NCBI RefSeq assembly: GCF_000317595.1
Contig: NZ_AEJC01000638.1
Location: forward strand, 1-64,000
Length of the DNA stretch: 64,000 bases
Direction of reading: 5' to 3'
Source of the DNA: Streptomyces ipomoeae 91-03
GTDB taxonomy: Bacteria > Actinomycetota > Actinomycetes > Streptomycetales > Streptomycetaceae
A model generated the notes under the pieces. The model saw only the letters and a list, made by a program, of their open reading frames with translations. It was not told the origin of the DNA and did no database searches. This document shows positions 28,643 to 39,071 of this stretch, one piece after another; within the stretch, counting starts at the first letter, position 1; each line of letters starts with the position of its first letter. Position numbers and translations under genes: made by a program.

Positions 28643-29341
28643 TGGAATAAGATCTTAGGTGGACCACTCACTCTTGTCACTGTCGTGCCGTCGCAACCCA
28701 TCAATTTCCGGCCACCTCGGAATTCCCTCCAAAATTTGCGGAATTCCGGCCTTGTTCGTCCTGTCGTGTGCCGGGGAATGGCGTTGGCCGACGAGCTACG
28801 CCATGAAGATCATCGGTTCCCGCGCATGCGACCCCGGGGAGGAGACTCAGCCTTGCGTCCACAGGGGAGCAGCTTCGAGGAACGGCCGCGGCGAACTTCG
28901 CGCGCGACACCAAGACCGCAGCGCCGGCAGAACCGGACGTCCTGATTCAGACCCTGTACGAGGACCTGAGCAGACTGCCGGGCCAACGCACAGCTGGACG
29001 CGATGTTGTGCCTGCTGGAGGGGCCACCAGTCGCACCGGCTTCGCGGACGCCTCTTCTCCGGCACAGCGGTCGGCTCGCCAGTCGGATGGCGTCACTCAG
29101 GCCGCACCCCCAGGCGGCGAACCTGTCCGACTCGTCGAACCGCGGTCACAGCCCAGGCCTGAGATTGACGGCTCATCGAACTTGACCGGGGTCGAGCCTG
29201 GTCGGCTCAGGTTCTGCCCGTGGGGGGCCACCGGGAAGTCGTTCGCCGCGGAAGCGGGATCGTGACGGTCGAGCTCTCATGGCCAGGGTGACCCTCCAAG
29301 ACGCCCGCGACTACGGCGACGCCGGCACCTGCGGAAGGACG
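28643..29341. other. Gene-poor spacer
   Basis: About 700 bp in which no frame shows a recognisable domain or a good start signal. It links the biosynthetic cluster to a zone of transposase and regulator fragments. Nothing else was identified. Confidence 0.5.
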
Positions 29342-29458
29342 GTATGTGCCTGGCTGGCCCGCTACAACACCCGCCGTCGGCACTCCGCCAACGGCCACCT
29401 CAGCCCCAACGAATACGAACGCCGACACCACGCGGCTGAGCTCACGCTCGCCGCGTGA
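29342..29458 (+). pseudogene. IS3-family OrfB C-terminal fragment
   Basis: Encodes CAWLARYNTRRRHSANGHLS then PNEYERRHHA, the conserved last 40 residues of the IS3-type integrase core (WxxxYNxxRxHSxLGxxSPxxYE). Nothing upstream in frame continues the transposase. It is a small IS scar. Confidence 0.75.
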
Positions 29459-29754
29459 TCAACGAAGCGTGTCCACCATCACGGGGGAAGGCCCGGTCGA
29501 CATTCCGGGAAAAGCGACCGCCTTCTTCGCGAGCGACCGCCTTCTTCGCGCAGGACAAGATGAGGTAGACACCGCCGCGCGGTGCCGCTTCATCGGTGCG
29601 ACGGGCCGCACGGCGCGAGGAGGTGACCGAAGGAGCCCGCGGCGTGGCTCTGCTGAAGGACGCCGTCGACGGGCTGGGGCCGCCGGACCGTCATTGGTCG
29701 AAGGACAGGGAGCATGTGGCAGATCTGAGGCCTTCGGCGCGTTCCGGCGCGTCC

Positions 29755-32608: not shown

Positions 32609-33925
32609 GTGAGCCCCGTGCACGACGACACACATGTCGACACATATGTCGACGCGAACCGGCGACTGAGCGACGCACAGCAGTCGGACAACCTTCGGAC
32701 GTTCATGGGAGCGGCTGCCCGGCACAGTGGGGGCACCGTTACCGACCGCATGCACCTGCGGATCACCCGGGACATCGCGGAAGGATTCGCGGCTCACAGC
32801 GGTCAGGGCGGAGCGACGAAGACCCAGGTGTGGGAGTGGATCACACAGCACGCCTCTCCGACCTATTCAGTGGAGGCGTTCGAGTCCCGGTGGGAGGTCT
32901 TCGAGAGCGAGCGGCTCATCCGTCCCCACCGGTCCAAGAAGCACCAGCAGCGGCACTCCTTCCACCCCCTCGGCACGGTCTTCCTGATGATCTGCGACCG
33001 GCTGGAAAGCCGCGGCGGCATCGACGAGCTGATCGACCTGCTGGACCGTACACAGGAGCTCCTCGACCGCGACCACCCCGACCGTGAAGCGGTCGCCCAC
33101 AACATCGTTTTCTGCCAGTGGGTGTTCCAGACGTTCGCCGTGCAGCTGGCAGCGCTGGTTGTCGACGGCTCGCTGCAGGAGCTGATGGAGGACCAGTGGC
33201 AGTACCGCCATCAGGACCTGGACCAGCGGATCCTGCGCCTGAATCACGAGGTGAACCGCCACTTCCCGAAGGACGTCGACCTCGCCCACAAGGCCATCGC
33301 CATGGTCGAGGCCGAGCAGCGGTACGCGCACTGGGCGGCACAGGCTGTGCTGCGTGTGCTGGACCGCGCCGGGACGACGCTGGACTTCGATGTCCTGTCG
33401 GCGGAGGAGTACCTGGACGCCGCCCGGAACGCCCCGCCGGAGCAGCTCGCCGAGGCCGGCCTCGCGCTGGTGGCGGACGCGCCGCAGGTGTGGCTCGACG
33501 CCGGGGCCGTCGTGGACGCCCTGGAAGCGTTCGTGCCTCGTCACCGGGTGCGCTACCGGCCCCCGCTGCCCGAGGGGTCCCCCGACCGGGATCCGTTCGG
33601 CGCGGTGGCCGAGCGAGCGGTACGGGAACGGGCACGGCGCGAGCGGGCCGCCGACCGCATGCTCCTGGAGCAGGACCGGGCCGAGATGACGGAGGAGCTG
33701 CGTCGCTCGCGGTGGCCGCGGGCCGTCCGGCTCCTGACCGACCTGATCCTGCTGGATGCCGATCCCCACGCCCCGTACCGGGTGGAGATGGGCACCGAGC
33801 TGATCATCGACCGCGAGGCGTGGGTGACCCACCTGCACCCGGTCACGGTGCACCGTACAAACACCCCGGCGGTCCTGCCACCGCCGGTTCCGGTGGCAAC
33901 CGAGCAAGGCGATGAAGAACCCTGA
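32609..33925 (+). CDS. Subunit 1 of SMC-like operon, candidate kleisin (JetA/MksF-like)
   Basis: 438 aa, helical and charged. Residues about 45-110 look like a winged-helix segment (TKTQVWEWITQHASPTYSVE, SFHPLGTVFLMICDRLES); the centre is helical, and residues 320-370 are an Arg/Glu-rich helix (ERAVRERARRERAADRMLLE). No catalytic motif is seen. Assignment as kleisin rests on size, fold type and first position in an operon ending with an SMC-like ATPase, as in mksFEB/jetABC. GTG 32609 is chosen for GAAGGGG 8 nt upstream; an in-frame start at 32564 is possible. It overlaps the next gene by 14 bp. Confidence 0.6.
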   Translation: MSPVHDDTHVDTYVDANRRLSDAQQSDNLRTFMGAAARHSGGTVTDRMHLRITRDIAEGFAAHSGQGGATKTQVWEWITQHASPTYSVEAFESRWEVFESERLIRPHRSKKHQQRHSFHPLGTVFLMICDRLESRGGIDELIDLLDRTQELLDRDHPDREAVAHNIVFCQWVFQTFAVQLAALVVDGSLQELMEDQWQYRHQDLDQRILRLNHEVNRHFPKDVDLAHKAIAMVEAEQRYAHWAAQAVLRVLDRAGTTLDFDVLSAEEYLDAARNAPPEQLAEAGLALVADAPQVWLDAGAVVDALEAFVPRHRVRYRPPLPEGSPDRDPFGAVAERAVRERARRERAADRMLLEQDRAEMTEELRRSRWPRAVRLLTDLILLDADPHAPYRVEMGTELIIDREAWVTHLHPVTVHRTNTPAVLPPPVPVATEQGDEEP

Positions 33926-34502
33926 CGCGGCGCTGATCCTCGCCGCCGCCCGAGCAGACGGCGCACTCCACCCCGACCGTTTCCCGGCGAGCCTTGTGGC
34001 GCAGGCCGACGAGGTGGCTCATGCCGCAGGGCGCAGTCTGGTGGAGTGCGACTGCCCGTGGCCCGCACCGGCCGGTACCGTCGACCGGCCGGGCCCGCCC
34101 GGCCGCGCGCTCGTGCTGGGCTGGTCGGAGGCTCCGGTTCCCGAGGAACTGGGCACCTACCCGGTCGCCCGCCTCACCCCGACTCAGACGATCACCTTCG
34201 CCCTGTGCCTGGCTCAGGCGTGGCCGGACCCGCGCCTGCCTCCGTATCCGGGCCGTCCTTTCGAACGGGCCCAGATCCTGGACCTGGCCGGTGACATCGG
34301 ACTGGACGTGAAATTCGCCAAGGCCGCCCTCGACGGCGAACTGCGATGGCTGTTGCTGATCGTCCGCGACGGTCCCCTGCTGCGGCTGGGGCCGGCGGTG
34401 GCCGCGCTGCCCGGCACCTTCGCCGAAACCATGCGGCGCTTTCACGACCGGCTCCCGAGCCCGGACGACGCCCCGCCGACGTGGGAGGACGAGGATGAAT
34501 GA
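33912..34502 (+). CDS. Subunit 2 of SMC-like operon, unknown
   Basis: 196-aa soluble protein, no domain recognised with confidence. It has an acidic C-terminus (DDAPPTWEDEDE) and a helical stretch RAQILDLAGDIGLDVKFAKA followed by LDGELRWLLLIVRDGPLLRL that could be a small winged helix. It overlaps the gene before by 14 bp and the gene after by 8 bp, so it is co-translated and probably part of the complex. Classical Mks/Wadjet loci have one small E/B-type subunit; this operon has two. Confidence 0.6.
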   Translation: MKNPDAALILAAARADGALHPDRFPASLVAQADEVAHAAGRSLVECDCPWPAPAGTVDRPGPPGRALVLGWSEAPVPEELGTYPVARLTPTQTITFALCLAQAWPDPRLPPYPGRPFERAQILDLAGDIGLDVKFAKAALDGELRWLLLIVRDGPLLRLGPAVAALPGTFAETMRRFHDRLPSPDDAPPTWEDEDE

Positions 34503-35151
34503 GGCACCGCTCTCCGACGACGACGAGGCACAGGTCCAGGCCGCCGTCGCCGCGGTGGAAACCACTGACGGGCTCGTGCCCCGCGAGGCGTTTCCCGCGC
34601 TGCGGAGCGATGCGCTGCGGGCGGTCGTCGCCCGTCGCCTGGCCGCGCTGGGCCGCGTGTTGCTGGTCCGCGAGCACCACGGGATCAAGGGCTTCACCAG
34701 CGGTTACGAAGACAGCGTGGCCGAGCGCCTGGCCGCCGAGGGCATCGGGGTCCTGCCCCCGGTGGACCGGGCGGTACTGGTGCTGGTGCTGCTGCGTACC
34801 GTGGCGGCCCCCAGAGCCCGCGGCGTGCACGGCTCGGCGACCTGGCTCACGGACGGGCCGGGCACGAGCATCGAGGAGTTGTACGCCAACCCGCACTTCA
34901 CCTACGAGGACCTCCGTCCGGCGGTACGCCGCCTCAAGGCACGGCGCCTGCTACGGGAAGGCTTCCACCGCACCCTGCTGCCCGGGCCCGCGCTGCTGCG
35001 CCTCACCGACACGCAGTCCGCCCGGCTGTGGGAGGACCTGGTCCTGGTCACCCGGCCCGACTCCCCGTACGCACGGGCCATCCGCCGACGCCGTCAAGAG
35101 CAACCGCACTCCGGCCGCCGGTCCGGCCCCCAGCCCGAGACAGCACCATGA
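34495..35151 (+). CDS. Subunit 3 of SMC-like operon, MksE/JetB-like
   Basis: 218 aa. The central part (LVLVLLRTVAAPRARGVHGS) and FTYEDLRPAVRRLKARRLLR then EGFHRTLLPGPALLRLTD look like the tandem winged-helix architecture of MukE/MksE subunits. Those bind the kleisin and SMC heads. No enzymatic motif. ATG overlaps the previous gene, and its TGA overlaps the ATG of the SMC-like gene. Family placement is by pattern and position; a profile search would decide. Confidence 0.55.
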   Translation: MNEAPLSDDDEAQVQAAVAAVETTDGLVPREAFPALRSDALRAVVARRLAALGRVLLVREHHGIKGFTSGYEDSVAERLAAEGIGVLPPVDRAVLVLVLLRTVAAPRARGVHGSATWLTDGPGTSIEELYANPHFTYEDLRPAVRRLKARRLLREGFHRTLLPGPALLRLTDTQSARLWEDLVLVTRPDSPYARAIRRRRQEQPHSGRRSGPQPETAP

Positions 35152-38100
35152 TCACTTTCACCCCGACGCACGAAACGCAGCCTTCGGACGATGCCCCGAT
35201 GAGCCTGGGGATCATCGGGGACCGGCAACTGCTGTGCGTCCAGACCTTCGACATCGCCCGGCACCCCGCCACCGCGGTCGGGATCGTCCCCGGCTGCTTC
35301 GTCGCCGTCTCCGGAAAAGGCCCCAGGGACGCGAACGAGTCCGGGAAGACCAGCTGGCTGGCCTCCGTCGCCCTGCTCCTCGGAGATCCGGAATGGCGCA
35401 TGCACAGCAGCGGTCCGGCCACCGTCGCGGACCTGCTCTTCGAGCCGCAGACCGCCGGGGTGGCCGCCCAGGGCTACGCACCCGCGACCACCGGCTACAT
35501 CGCCGGGCTCTTCGCCGCCCCGGACGACGTCTCCGGCACAGCCCACACCGTCTGGATGAAGCTGTCCGCCACTCCGACGTACGTCGAGGTCCGGCACGCT
35601 CCCGGCATTCACCTGGCCACCGCCCAGGACGACGACGAACGCCACCGCCAGGCCGCGGAGATCTACCGCGGCCTGCCGTCGGCGTCCTCGCTGGGAGCGA
35701 CCCGGTACGCGACCGCCCTGTACGGGCCCGTCCCCCGCTGCCTCGCCTTCCTGACCTCCCGGGGGAAACGGCGCGGCGGGCCCTCCCTGCTCAAGCTCGA
35801 CACCGGCCTGTTCACCCCTGCCGGCATCGGCACCGCACTGATCGGACTCACCGGCCGCGCCTCCCTGCTGGACACCGACGCCTCCCTGCGCCATGACCTG
35901 GGCGAAGCGGAGCACGAGCTGCAGACCAGCCGGACCGAGGACGTCGACAGTCACGCGATCGAGGAACGAGCCCTGCGCGCCGTCACCCAGCGTGGCAACG
36001 CGCGCGAGGAACTCGCCCGCGCTCAGGAGCTGTGGGCCCTGCACTACGCCCGCGGGCTGCTCGACGCTCTTGAGCGCGCCGAGCAGCTGCATGCCGCGCT
36101 GGACGATCAAGCCGAGACGCTCGCACGAGCCCGGGACGAGCGTGCGTCGGCCGAAGCCGTCCAGCGGGCGCTCGAGGACCCTGCGCGCCTGGAACACCGG
36201 CGCGACGAGACGGAACTCGCCGAGCAAATGGCCGAGCGGCTGCTGGACCAGGCCCACGACGAGGAGAGCGGTGCACGTCACCGGCTCGCCTCGCACAACA
36301 GGGCGCTCCAAGAAGCCGAGGACGCCGCGGCCGGGGCGCGCGGGGACCTCGATGACGCCCGCCACGAGGCTGGGCGAGCCCATCAGCGCACCGTCGCCTG
36401 CGGGGTCCGCCTGGCCGAGGCCGACGCGCGGCTTCAGCACGCCCGCGACGACCTCTCCCGGGCAGCAGAAGGACGCTACGGCGCCGTCGGACGGACCATC
36501 GGCACCTTGAGCACGGCGGGAATCAGCGCCAGGGGGCTGCTCGACTGGCTCGTCCTGCCCCCCGAGGAGCGCTCCGCATGGGAGCCGCGGCTGGCGCTGT
36601 ACGGCGACGCCGTGTGCATCGGGGCATCCGAGGTCCCCGCCGCCCGCAGAGCACTCGCCGACCAGCCGGGCGCCGTCCTGATCGCCGTACCCGACGACAC
36701 GGGCGAACACCCCGACGACCCCGTACGGGACTTCCTGAACGCCCTGGCCAGGCGCATGCGCCTGGAGCGCGGCCCGGACACCGCGGTCGATGACGCCCTC
36801 GGCCTGTGCGTGCTGGGCGGGTTCACCGAACCGTTCACCGGCCGAGCCGCCCTTGTCGACCGCCTTCGCACCGAGGTGGCACGGGCAGAGCAGGATCTCG
36901 CCGCCGCGCGCCGGTTGTGTGACCGGGCCGAGGAAGCCGAAGCGCAGAGCGAGGAACTGGTCCGCCGCCTGGTGGCCGCGGCTTCGGCCGCTCGACTGCG
37001 GTCCCAGCGCCCCGCGCTCGAACGCGAACTCGCCGCTCTCCAGCGCAGGACCGCGGCGCGCAGGCAGGCACGGGACGCTGCCGAGAGCGCCCTGCGGCAA
37101 GCGGTCGTCGCCCACGCCACCCGCGCTCTCCAGCACGCCCAGGCCCAGAGCGTGATCGACAAGGCCCGGTCGGTCGAACGGCAGGCCGCCCAACAACACG
37201 CGGCCCTCGAGAAGCAGATCGCCGCTCTCGACATCACCTACTGGCAGGAACACGGCGGCAGCCGCGAAGCCGCCCTCCGCGCCCTGCGCCGGCCCACTAC
37301 CTCACCCGTGGTCGAGGGCCGGCAGACCCCGCAACCCGAACGCCGCAGCGAAAGCACCCTGCGCCTACGGGCCGGCCGTCACCTCGACCACGCCCTCGAA
37401 GCGGTCGGTATCGACACCGACACCGGTGCCGGCGCGCCGACCACCGCACTCCAGGACGCCGTCCGGCACCGCAACAATCTCAGCGACGACAGTGCCGGCC
37501 GCGCGTTCGCCGATGCCACCGCGTTCGAAACGCCCGCCCACGCTCTGCAGGGCTGGCTCGACCGCTTCACCGACTCCGACGCCTCGGCCGCTCAGCGCAT
37601 CGCCGCCGAGCGCGCCGGACGGGCCGACCGGATCGCCTTCGGCGAGCAGAAGGCCGCCGACCTTCGGATGAGCCTGCGCACCATGCAGGGCAGCATCGCC
37701 CTGCGGCTCGCACAGGCCCTGGACGACATCGAAGACGCCCTCGCCACGCTGAACCGCGACGCCGGTCTGTACGGTGCCGAACTCCACCGTGTGCTCACCC
37801 CGCCGCCCTCCCCGCGGGACGTATGGCGCTGCGAAGTGACTCCGTACTGGCGGCGTAGTCCCCACGGCCCCCTGCTGCCCTACGACAACATCACCAACTC
37901 GGCGCAGGAGAAGCTGTTCTCCATCCATCTGGTCCTGGCCGCGCTCCTCGCCTCACCACATCCACGCGGCCGCGTGCTCATCCTCGACGAACTGGGCGAC
38001 TCCCTCGGCACACACCATCGCCAGGAGGTCCTCGGAGCCCTGGCCAAATGCACGCGGGAACACGGCATCACGGTGCTTGGCACCTGCCAGGAGTCGCTCC

Positions 38101-38261
38101 TCGACGACGCCGCCGAACACTGCGGCGAACTCCTCTACTTCACCTATCCCAGCCACACCGAGGCGCTCAACGCGCCCACCCGCATGTTCGGCTACGACGC
38201 CAACGGCGAGCGCGTCGAGCTCACCGCGGACGCCCTGCTGGCCGGGCGCGCCTGGTGGTGA
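35148..38261 (+). CDS. SMC/MukB-like ATPase (JetC/MksB-like)
   Basis: 1037-aa split-ABC ATPase. An atypical Walker A, SGKGPRDANESGKTSW, lies near residue 65. Long Ala/Glu/Arg-rich coiled coils run about 265-440 and 575-720. Between them is a globular hinge-like part (about 440-575, LLDWLVLPPEERSAWEPRLA). The C-terminal head holds a signature-like ITNSAQEKLFSIHLVLAALL and Walker B RVLILDELGDSLG. ATG overlaps the preceding TGA. These features match SMC-like subunits of Mks and Wadjet systems, which entrap DNA and in Wadjet cleave plasmids through JetD. No JetD homologue follows in the window. Confidence 0.8.
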   Translation: MITFTPTHETQPSDDAPMSLGIIGDRQLLCVQTFDIARHPATAVGIVPGCFVAVSGKGPRDANESGKTSWLASVALLLGDPEWRMHSSGPATVADLLFEPQTAGVAAQGYAPATTGYIAGLFAAPDDVSGTAHTVWMKLSATPTYVEVRHAPGIHLATAQDDDERHRQAAEIYRGLPSASSLGATRYATALYGPVPRCLAFLTSRGKRRGGPSLLKLDTGLFTPAGIGTALIGLTGRASLLDTDASLRHDLGEAEHELQTSRTEDVDSHAIEERALRAVTQRGNAREELARAQELWALHYARGLLDALERAEQLHAALDDQAETLARARDERASAEAVQRALEDPARLEHRRDETELAEQMAERLLDQAHDEESGARHRLASHNRALQEAEDAAAGARGDLDDARHEAGRAHQRTVACGVRLAEADARLQHARDDLSRAAEGRYGAVGRTIGTLSTAGISARGLLDWLVLPPEERSAWEPRLALYGDAVCIGASEVPAARRALADQPGAVLIAVPDDTGEHPDDPVRDFLNALARRMRLERGPDTAVDDALGLCVLGGFTEPFTGRAALVDRLRTEVARAEQDLAAARRLCDRAEEAEAQSEELVRRLVAAASAARLRSQRPALERELAALQRRTAARRQARDAAESALRQAVVAHATRALQHAQAQSVIDKARSVERQAAQQHAALEKQIAALDITYWQEHGGSREAALRALRRPTTSPVVEGRQTPQPERRSESTLRLRAGRHLDHALEAVGIDTDTGAGAPTTALQDAVRHRNNLSDDSAGRAFADATAFETPAHALQGWLDRFTDSDASAAQRIAAERAGRADRIAFGEQKAADLRMSLRTMQGSIALRLAQALDDIEDALATLNRDAGLYGAELHRVLTPPPSPRDVWRCEVTPYWRRSPHGPLLPYDNITNSAQEKLFSIHLVLAALLASPHPRGRVLILDELGDSLGTHHRQEVLGALAKCTREHGITVLGTCQESLLDDAAEHCGELLYFTYPSHTEALNAPTRMFGYDANGERVELTADALLAGRAWW

Positions 38262-38537: not shown

Positions 38538-39071
38538 ATGCCGACGAGAATTCTGCTCGAGGGACGCCCCGGCGTGGGCAAAACGACCATTGTCCGTCGA
38601 TTGGCCGCGCTACTGAGCACCCGTAGGGCTGTCGGCTTCACCACGGAGGAGATCCGGCACGGCGGTACCCGGAGCGGTTTCGCGCTGGAAACACTGGAGG
38701 GCGACATGCGAGCCGTGCTCGCCCATGTCGACTTCCCGGGTCCACCGCGGGTGGGCCGGTACGGCGTCGACCTGGGCGTCATGGAGCGGCTCGCGCTGCC
38801 GCCGCTCAGGTCAGCGGCGGCAGAGCCCGCTCCTGGAGATCTCGTGCTGATCGACGAGCTCGGGCGTATGGAGCTGGCGTGCACCGCGTTCCAGGAGACG
38901 GTCCGGATCCTGTTCGCGTCCGACATCGACATCGTGGCCACGGTCCACGCGCACAGTGACCCCTTCACCGACGCCCTCAAACAGCGCCCCGACATCACAC
39001 TCGTCCAGGTGACCCGGGCCAATCGGGACGCCCTCCCCGAGGATTTGGCGGCCCGGCTCGAAGGGCCATGA
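38538..39071 (+). CDS. THEP1-type nucleoside triphosphatase
   Basis: 177-aa P-loop protein of the NTPase_1/THEP1 family. Walker A LLEGRPGVGKTTIVRRL at the N-terminus, TEEIRHGGTRSGFALET family segment, and Walker B LVLIDELGRMELACTAF. It hydrolyses nucleotides in vitro in characterised relatives; the role in bacteria is unclear. ATG 38538 places the P loop at the usual distance. The frame is open further upstream to 38265, and that stretch contains two 21-bp repeats (Glu-Gln-Asp-Gly-Ala coding), so a longer N-terminus is possible. It follows the SMC operon by 276 bp. Confidence 0.8.
   Translation: MPTRILLEGRPGVGKTTIVRRLAALLSTRRAVGFTTEEIRHGGTRSGFALETLEGDMRAVLAHVDFPGPPRVGRYGVDLGVMERLALPPLRSAAAEPAPGDLVLIDELGRMELACTAFQETVRILFASDIDIVATVHAHSDPFTDALKQRPDITLVQVTRANRDALPEDLAARLEGP

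What the first reader, a model, noticed from the sequence alone, without database searches (positions are those of the whole stretch)
32609..38261. Four-gene SMC-like operon resembling Mks/Wadjet but without JetD and with an extra small subunit
Four genes overlap by 14, 8 and 4 bp. The last encodes an SMC-like ATPase with a variant Walker A (DANESGKTS), two coiled coils, a hinge-like domain and Walker B LILDELGDSLG. The first looks kleisin-like, the third MksE-like; the second is unrecognised. Wadjet loci carry jetABCD with a nuclease. Here the gene after jetC-like is 276 bp away and is a THEP1-type NTPase. It may be a nuclease-free plasmid or chromosome-organising system, or use another effector. 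The operon is intact and next to mobile-element debris.
Basis: partly seen in the sequence, partly recalled or inferred. Interest (0 to 1): 0.75.

Follow-up and report, generated by a model that had tools for sequence, protein, structure and literature searches.

The report
Nuclease-free Wadjet-like SMC operon in Streptomyces
Four overlapping genes in a soil bacterium encode what looks like a DNA-handling motor distantly related to an anti-plasmid machine called Wadjet, but without the DNA-cutting part that several of its relatives still carry, so the family can be used to study how such a machine gains or loses its weapon.

Summary
In detail: four intact genes (A 32609-33925, B 33912-34502, C 34495-35151, D 35148-38261) overlap by 14, 8 and 4 bp. 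D is SMC-like. No nuclease gene is adjacent, and no cognate JetD was found elsewhere in this genome.

Homologous operons occur in many actinobacteria. The window group (4 genomes) is nested among JetD-bearing operons, which implies JetD loss. A second clade (28 loci) shows no Toprim JetD in the fetched stretches; it includes a genus with the operon in 12 of 12 held genomes. Two Streptomyces operons carry a JetD-arm-like stretch fused to a protein kinase.

Profile comparison links D to JetC (E 3.5e-13; reversed control 4e-5). B and C, fused in 13 of 42 loci, may be a split KITE pair; the sequence support is weak. A shows no JetA signal, and both AlphaFold models were unusable.

Best reading: a functional, nuclease-less SMC motor core of an unclassified Wadjet-like family that handles DNA without cutting it. 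No function was tested.

The parts
32609..33925 (+). Gene A (438 aa), putative kleisin (JetA/MksF position); the ORF can be extended to 32564
   Evidence: matched in 43 of 44 scanned loci; HTH_IclR match in 2 of 19 members, best 0.0019; no JetA similarity
33912..34502 (+). Gene B (196 aa), putative first KITE subunit
   Evidence: one ORF with C in 13 of 42 loci; weak match to JetB, hhalign E 0.0033, which is not specific because A scores 0.0014 against JetB in the same call
34495..35151 (+). Gene C (218 aa), putative second KITE subunit; winged helix in its second half in relatives
   Evidence: winged-helix families match members (DprA_WH in 7 of 18, best 1.9e-6); a JetB1 model matches 1 of 18 members at 1.7e-4
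35148..38261 (+). Gene D (1037 aa), SMC-like ATPase of the JetC kind
   Evidence: SMC_N in 6 of 18 members, best 2.4e-4; D versus JetC profile E 3.5e-13, reversed control 4e-5
35328..35351 (+). Walker A DANESGKT in D
37896..37907 (+). NSAQ in D, at the place of the ABC signature
   Evidence: falls in the third hhalign segment with JetC (E 4.9e-4)
37977..37997 (+). Walker B LILDELG in D
38538..39071 (+). THEP1-type NTPase (conserved part); neighbour in the shared block, probably not a subunit
   Evidence: present beside A-D in L002 and L003, beside a D remnant in L005, not in L004; no match in the other loci scanned

Best explanation
A-B-C-D is the motor core of an unclassified, strongly diverged Wadjet-like (JetABC-like) SMC complex: D is the SMC ATPase, A the kleisin, and B plus C a pair of different winged-helix KITE subunits in place of the usual MukE/JetB homodimer. 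In the window lineage the nuclease subunit JetD has been lost while the motor genes stayed under purifying selection. It most likely acts as an ATP-driven, condensin-like DNA loop extruder that binds or folds DNA (chromosome or incoming plasmid) without cutting it. Shown here: the gene set and its conservation, JetD in relatives, no cognate JetD found in this lineage, D-JetC profile similarity, B-C fusions. Inferred: the roles of A, B and C, loop extrusion, and the cellular role.
For: JetD-like genes lie next to the operon in L010, L011 and L072-L077 (profile and cluster); Pfam was run on three of them (L010, L074, L011) and gives JetD_C at 3.6e-17 to 2.9e-14, and DUF2399 at 7.3e-9 for L025. 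The E and the DLD are invariant in five of these JetDs. Profile comparison: D versus JetC E 3.5e-13 over 314 columns, reversed D 4e-5, five column shuffles at 0.13 or worse; cognate JetD versus JetD 4.3e-13. Tree of A+C+D: window group sister to JetD-bearing L075-L077, FastTree support 1.0. Best match to the cognate JetD profile in 30 genomes with complete JetD-less operons is 3.5e-6. Purifying selection. Operon in 12 of 12 genomes of genus g233, with recurring neighbours in most f88 loci, which fits a resident role in that clade.
Against: A shows no similarity to JetA (E 0.25) and scores better against JetB (0.0014) than B does (0.0033), so the JetB match is not specific. The hinge slice of D against JetC is not significant (0.43). 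B-C is weak (0.0055). Part of the D-JetC score is coiled coil, as the reversed control shows. PADLOC models for other P-loop proteins match more D members (mad8 13, LmuB 11, mad3 8 of 18) than JetC models do (3 of 18), and the JetC3 model gives matches of similar strength in 21 of 296 genomes. Both AlphaFold models were too poor to use (mean pLDDT 41.9 and 44.9). No experimental work on this family was seen in the paper searches made.
Confidence: 0.6

Rival explanations
1. The window operon is a plasmid-restricting Wadjet that borrows a nuclease in trans, for example JetD of the complete canonical JetABCD elsewhere in the same genome (contig C626).
For: The genome does carry a canonical JetABCD.
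Against: The three closest relatives (G453, G546, G451) show no JetD-like match at E 0.01 or better, although the same search detects the canonical JetD of G000 at 3.8e-6. Cognate JetDs of this family are quite unlike the canonical one, which scores only 33.9 bits with their profile.
Confidence: 0.08
2. Another effector replaced JetD: the THEP1 NTPase downstream is the functional fifth component in this lineage.
For: THEP1 lies in the shared block in the window, L002 and L003, and next to a 3' remnant of D in L005; two other operons have a kinase where Toprim would be, so effector exchange may happen.
Against: No THEP1 match in L004, whose A-D is open, nor in the more distant loci scanned; a 276-bp gap, unlike the overlapping A-D.
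Confidence: 0.1
3. The window operon is a decaying remnant that lost JetD and now drifts.
For: JetD loss; a D remnant in L005 and interrupted D genes in L076 and L176; patchy in the genus (14 of 295 genomes, the own included).
Against: All four genes are open, and dN/dS is at most 0.38 for A, C and D in all pairs; JetD-less operons are in 12 of 12 genomes of genus g233.
Confidence: 0.12
4. It is not Wadjet-related but another SMC/Rad50-like system (Lamassu-type or a private coiled-coil ATPase) with which JetD became associated secondarily.
For: LmuB models match 11 of 18 D members weakly (best 1.1e-5); no JetA similarity and only weak, unspecific JetB similarity.
Against: D matches JetC (3.5e-13) far better than an SbcC profile of two sequences (0.0063); JetD adjacency on several branches of clade 1.
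Confidence: 0.1

Closest known systems
Wadjet JetABCD (types I-III)
   Same: Order kleisin position - KITE position - SMC; SMC profile similarity to JetC; a JetD with Toprim beside the operon in part of the family
   Different: A-D of the window match no PADLOC model at E up to 1; two genes in the KITE position; JetD not found here, upstream of A in L075-L077 and convergent in L011
MksBEF / MukBEF condensins
   Same: Nuclease-less SMC set; possible chromosome role where fixed in a genus (inference)
   Different: No useful Pfam, PADLOC or NCBIfam match; B and C are different proteins, whereas C. glutamicum MksE is one protein with two copies per MksF (passages of PMC10123090)
Smc5/6 with Nse1/Nse3 (recalled, no call)
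   Same: Two different KITE subunits, as proposed here for B and C
   Different: Eukaryotic; no sequence test was made
Smc-ScpAB
   Same: SMC ATPase with accessory winged-helix proteins
   Different: Matches to SMC models are weak (SMC_N best 2.4e-4; TIGR02168 at 20.5 bits against a cut-off of 567)

Membership tests
Wadjet | SMC-like JetC ATPase | tested here: met
   hhalign D versus JetC E 3.5e-13, reversed control 4e-5; Walker motifs. The hinge slice alone was not significant.
Wadjet | JetA kleisin | tested here: inconclusive
   No profile similarity (E 0.25); model too poor
Wadjet | JetB KITE | tested here: inconclusive
   B versus JetB E 0.0033, but A versus JetB 0.0014; a JetB1 model matches 1 of 18 C members
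Wadjet | JetD Toprim nuclease in the operon | tested here: not met
   Not found in the 64-kb window or in the window group; present in 9 of 41 treeable homologous loci
Wadjet | Plasmid restriction | not testable with these tools
   Needs a transformation assay
Wadjet types I-III as modelled in PADLOC | Match to JetA/B/C models | tested here: not met
   No match of A-D of the window at E up to 1; weak matches of some relatives were judged unspecific
MksBEF condensin | SMC complex without nuclease that organises the chromosome | not testable with these tools
   No cognate nuclease found; subunit identity of A-C and function not shown
KITE proteins | Tandem winged-helix domains forming a dimer that binds the kleisin | tested here: inconclusive
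   Winged helix in C relatives; B-C in one ORF in 13 of 42 loci; B-C hhalign E 0.0055; structure failed

The most novel reading that the evidence does not exclude
A-B-C-D is the core of a fourth, undescribed Wadjet type with a split (B plus C) KITE dimer and exchangeable effectors: Toprim nuclease JetD in some lineages, a JetD arm fused to a protein kinase in another, and none in lineages where the motor has become a resident, condensin-like chromosome factor.
Probability: 0.5. Interest if true: 0.75.

Novelty: new variant of a known kind. Interest (0 to 1): 0.6.

Why it matters
A review (PMC10586767, section 7 read) leaves the origin of Wadjet unresolved and speculates that MukBEF and MksBEF have a history as defence systems. 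This family would make that testable: related motors exist with the nuclease, with a kinase in its place, and with neither, the last in all 12 held genomes of one genus. The B/C pair would also be a bacterial case of a KITE dimer made of two different proteins.

Tried and rejected
Pfam, PADLOC and NCBIfam on A-D of the window gave no useful match. PDB sequence searches gave only weak matches, for D mostly to coiled coils, ABC ATPases and SMC pieces and for C to winged helices. Viral contigs: three scans with D or C alignments, no relative. With the D protein, the phage collection held no match and the plasmid collection one, an 11.85-Mb Nonomuraea replicon. Comparisons with single canonical Jet proteins were uninformative; deep profiles helped only for D and JetD. 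The JetC3 PADLOC match was discarded as unspecific. AlphaFold models of A and C (4 near-identical sequences each) were too poor, so no fold search was run. THEP1 as a subunit, and JetD in trans, were considered and rated low. Not in the tree: L026 (fragment), L080 (only a C part) and L078 (truncated D; no JetD match in L177 or in its genome). In the tree although partial: L077 (D cut by the contig end) and L076 (interrupted D, first part only). L002, L003 and L004 are taken as the same genomes as L070, L071 and L069 (contig lengths agree) and were counted once. L176 was found after the tree and is not in its counts.

Full report
What is there. The four ORFs are as described: A 32609-33925, B 33912-34502, C 34495-35151, D 35148-38261, with overlaps of 14, 8 and 4 bp. 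None of A-D of the window has a useful match in Pfam, PADLOC or NCBIfam. The next gene is a THEP1-type NTPase.

Relatives. Near-identical operons (87-89% for D) lie in S. brasiliensis, Streptomyces sp. NWU339 and Ru72. The shared block is about 32.55-38.28 kb. THEP1 follows at its end in L002 and L003, but not in L004; S. hirsutus (L005) keeps the downstream neighbours, THEP1 and only a 3' remnant of D. Distant relatives were found with the D protein in 2 of 60 other genomes, and with the C profile in 14 of 295 genomes of the genus, 28 of 394 of the class and, at strong E-values, 3 of 296 of the phylum (the other 9 listed matches there are weak); these three tallies include the own genome. Of 44 scanned loci, 42 have all four parts, always in the order A-B-C-D on one strand. 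L026 has no B match, and L080 has only C. The best B and C matches lie in one ORF in 13 of 42 loci (L006, L075-L077, L098-L106).

JetD in relatives. A gene cluster beside several operons proved to be a divergent JetD. Pfam JetD_C gives E 3.6e-17, 2.9e-14 and 5.1e-15 in L010, L074 and L011, and DUF2399 7.3e-9 in L025; PADLOC JetD models agree. A profile of six such proteins, run on all loci then held and on the whole 64-kb window, matches L010, L011, L072-L077 (and L008 and L009, copies of two of these loci), more weakly L025 (1.4e-12), the canonical JetD of the own genome (1.1e-8, L012) and L079 (3e-7), and nothing in the window. The gene is downstream of D in L010 and L072-L074, upstream of A in L075-L077, and convergent in L011. 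Invariant residues of five of them include E and DLD, as expected of a Toprim domain (the meaning of these motifs is recalled). A comparison with a canonical JetD profile of 27 rows gives E 4.3e-13.

JetD absence. The tree of A+C+D (41 loci, midpoint-rooted) has two clades. In the first (13 loci) 9 have JetD. The 4 without it are the window group, sister to JetD-bearing L075-L077 with support 1.0, so one loss is the simplest history. In the second (28 loci: 14 of family f88, 12 of f86, Nonomuraea L006, and L079) none has a Toprim JetD in the fetched stretch; two of these stretches reach less than 2.5 kb beyond the operon on one side (L084, L097). A whole-genome search with the cognate JetD profile (36 genomes) covers 30 with complete JetD-less operons (4 of the window group, 14 f88, 12 f86). 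None has a strong match; the best are 3.5e-6 (G645), 3.8e-6 (G000, its canonical JetD) and 1.7e-5 (G688), and weaker ones occur in G741 and G630. In G645 and G688 a canonical JetC lies next to the match. The Nonomuraea genome was not searched in this way. The root is not known, so I cannot say whether the second clade lost JetD or never had it.

Kinase in place of the nuclease. In L079 the gene that overlaps the end of D by 4 bp has a stretch similar to the JetD arm (profile positions 59-193, 28.6 bits), followed by a protein kinase domain (E 6.4e-26) and no Toprim match. A second genome (G1005, 86% identical over the full length) has the same gene directly after D (L176), so this rests on two closely related copies. 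The other 25 of the 27 genomes matched match only from residue 186 onwards, that is the kinase part.

Is D a JetC? A JetC profile of 31 rows (the own JetC is in it twice) against 43 D rows gives probability 97.9%, E 3.5e-13, 314 columns through coiled coil, middle region and coiled coil. Controls: reversed D 4e-5; five column-shuffled versions 0.13 or worse; D versus an SbcC profile of two sequences 0.0063. Slices: N-terminal head 8.7e-5, C-terminal head 0.018, first coiled coil 0.0014, second 0.00042, hinge 0.43. So the likeness is real in my judgement but rests on the whole length, partly on coiled coil, and the hinge by itself proves nothing. PADLOC JetC3 and JetC2 matches (3 of 18 members each at most) count little: mad8, LmuB and mad3 models match more members, and the JetC3 model alone gives matches of similar strength in 21 of 296 genomes.

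A, B and C. A: no JetA similarity; HTH_IclR in 2 of 19 members. B versus JetB E 0.0033, model positions 84-158 against 85-163, but A versus JetB is 0.0014, so this is winged-helix likeness at best; C versus JetB 0.035; B versus C 0.0055. C: winged-helix families in several of 18 members, JetB1 in 1 of 18. AlphaFold models of A and C had mean pLDDT 41.9 and 44.9 and were not used. In the model of A the order helix-helix-helix-strand-strand at 47-118, as in a winged helix, had the better local confidence.

Selection and distribution. Pairwise dN/dS in the window group: A 0.17-0.27, B 0.38-0.72, C 0.14-0.33, D 0.29-0.38. All 12 held genomes of genus g233 carry the operon. Neighbour clusters c4 and c6 each recur in 12 of the 14 f88 loci; by eye they look like a solute-binding protein and a TrmB-like regulator. 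In two genomes of the genus (G365, G439) the JetD-bearing operon lies about 39 kb from both ends of the chromosome contig. Wadjet in general is reported to be enriched towards Streptomyces chromosome ends (passages of PMC10482375).

Mechanism proposed. By analogy with JetABC and MksBEF (PMC10586767, passages and section 7; PMC10123090, passages): D dimers hydrolyse ATP, A links heads and accessory subunits, B and C form the KITE pair, and the complex extrudes or clamps DNA. With JetD the complex would cut; without it, it can only hold or fold DNA. These steps are inference.

Novelty. Searches (held open-access papers only; listings seen) show no paper that I could recognise as describing such a four-gene Wadjet-like family, a two-subunit KITE in Wadjet, or a JetD-arm kinase. 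Subscription papers and preprints are not covered. Wadjet types I-III are mentioned in PMC10586767 (passage).

Noticed in passing
L079:3917-5287 and L176:7205-8587: JetD-arm-like N-terminus fused to a Ser/Thr protein kinase, directly downstream of D in two genomes of the genus: an apparent effector swap.
   Followed up: partly
L012:3971-10654 (G000 contig C626): The same genome carries a complete canonical JetABCD Wadjet.
   Followed up: yes
L076:2035-8401: D gene interrupted near the hinge by ORFs that look like transposase genes by eye.
   Followed up: partly
L176:8572-13376: D appears in two separated parts with about 1.5 kb between them.
   Followed up: no
L072, L073 (G365, G439): JetD-bearing operon's C gene is found twice, about 39 kb from each end of the chromosome contig.
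   Followed up: no
L081:12268-14049, L089:12389-14125: Another gene, kinase-like by eye and by clustering with the L079 kinase, lies directly downstream of D in two f86 genomes; L090 of the same branch lacks it.
   Followed up: no
38538-39071: THEP1 NTPase follows A-D in three Streptomyces but not in Ru72.
   Followed up: partly
29290-29496: Stretch 96.6% identical to part of an IS3 family transposase gene on a Streptomyces globosus plasmid.
   Followed up: no
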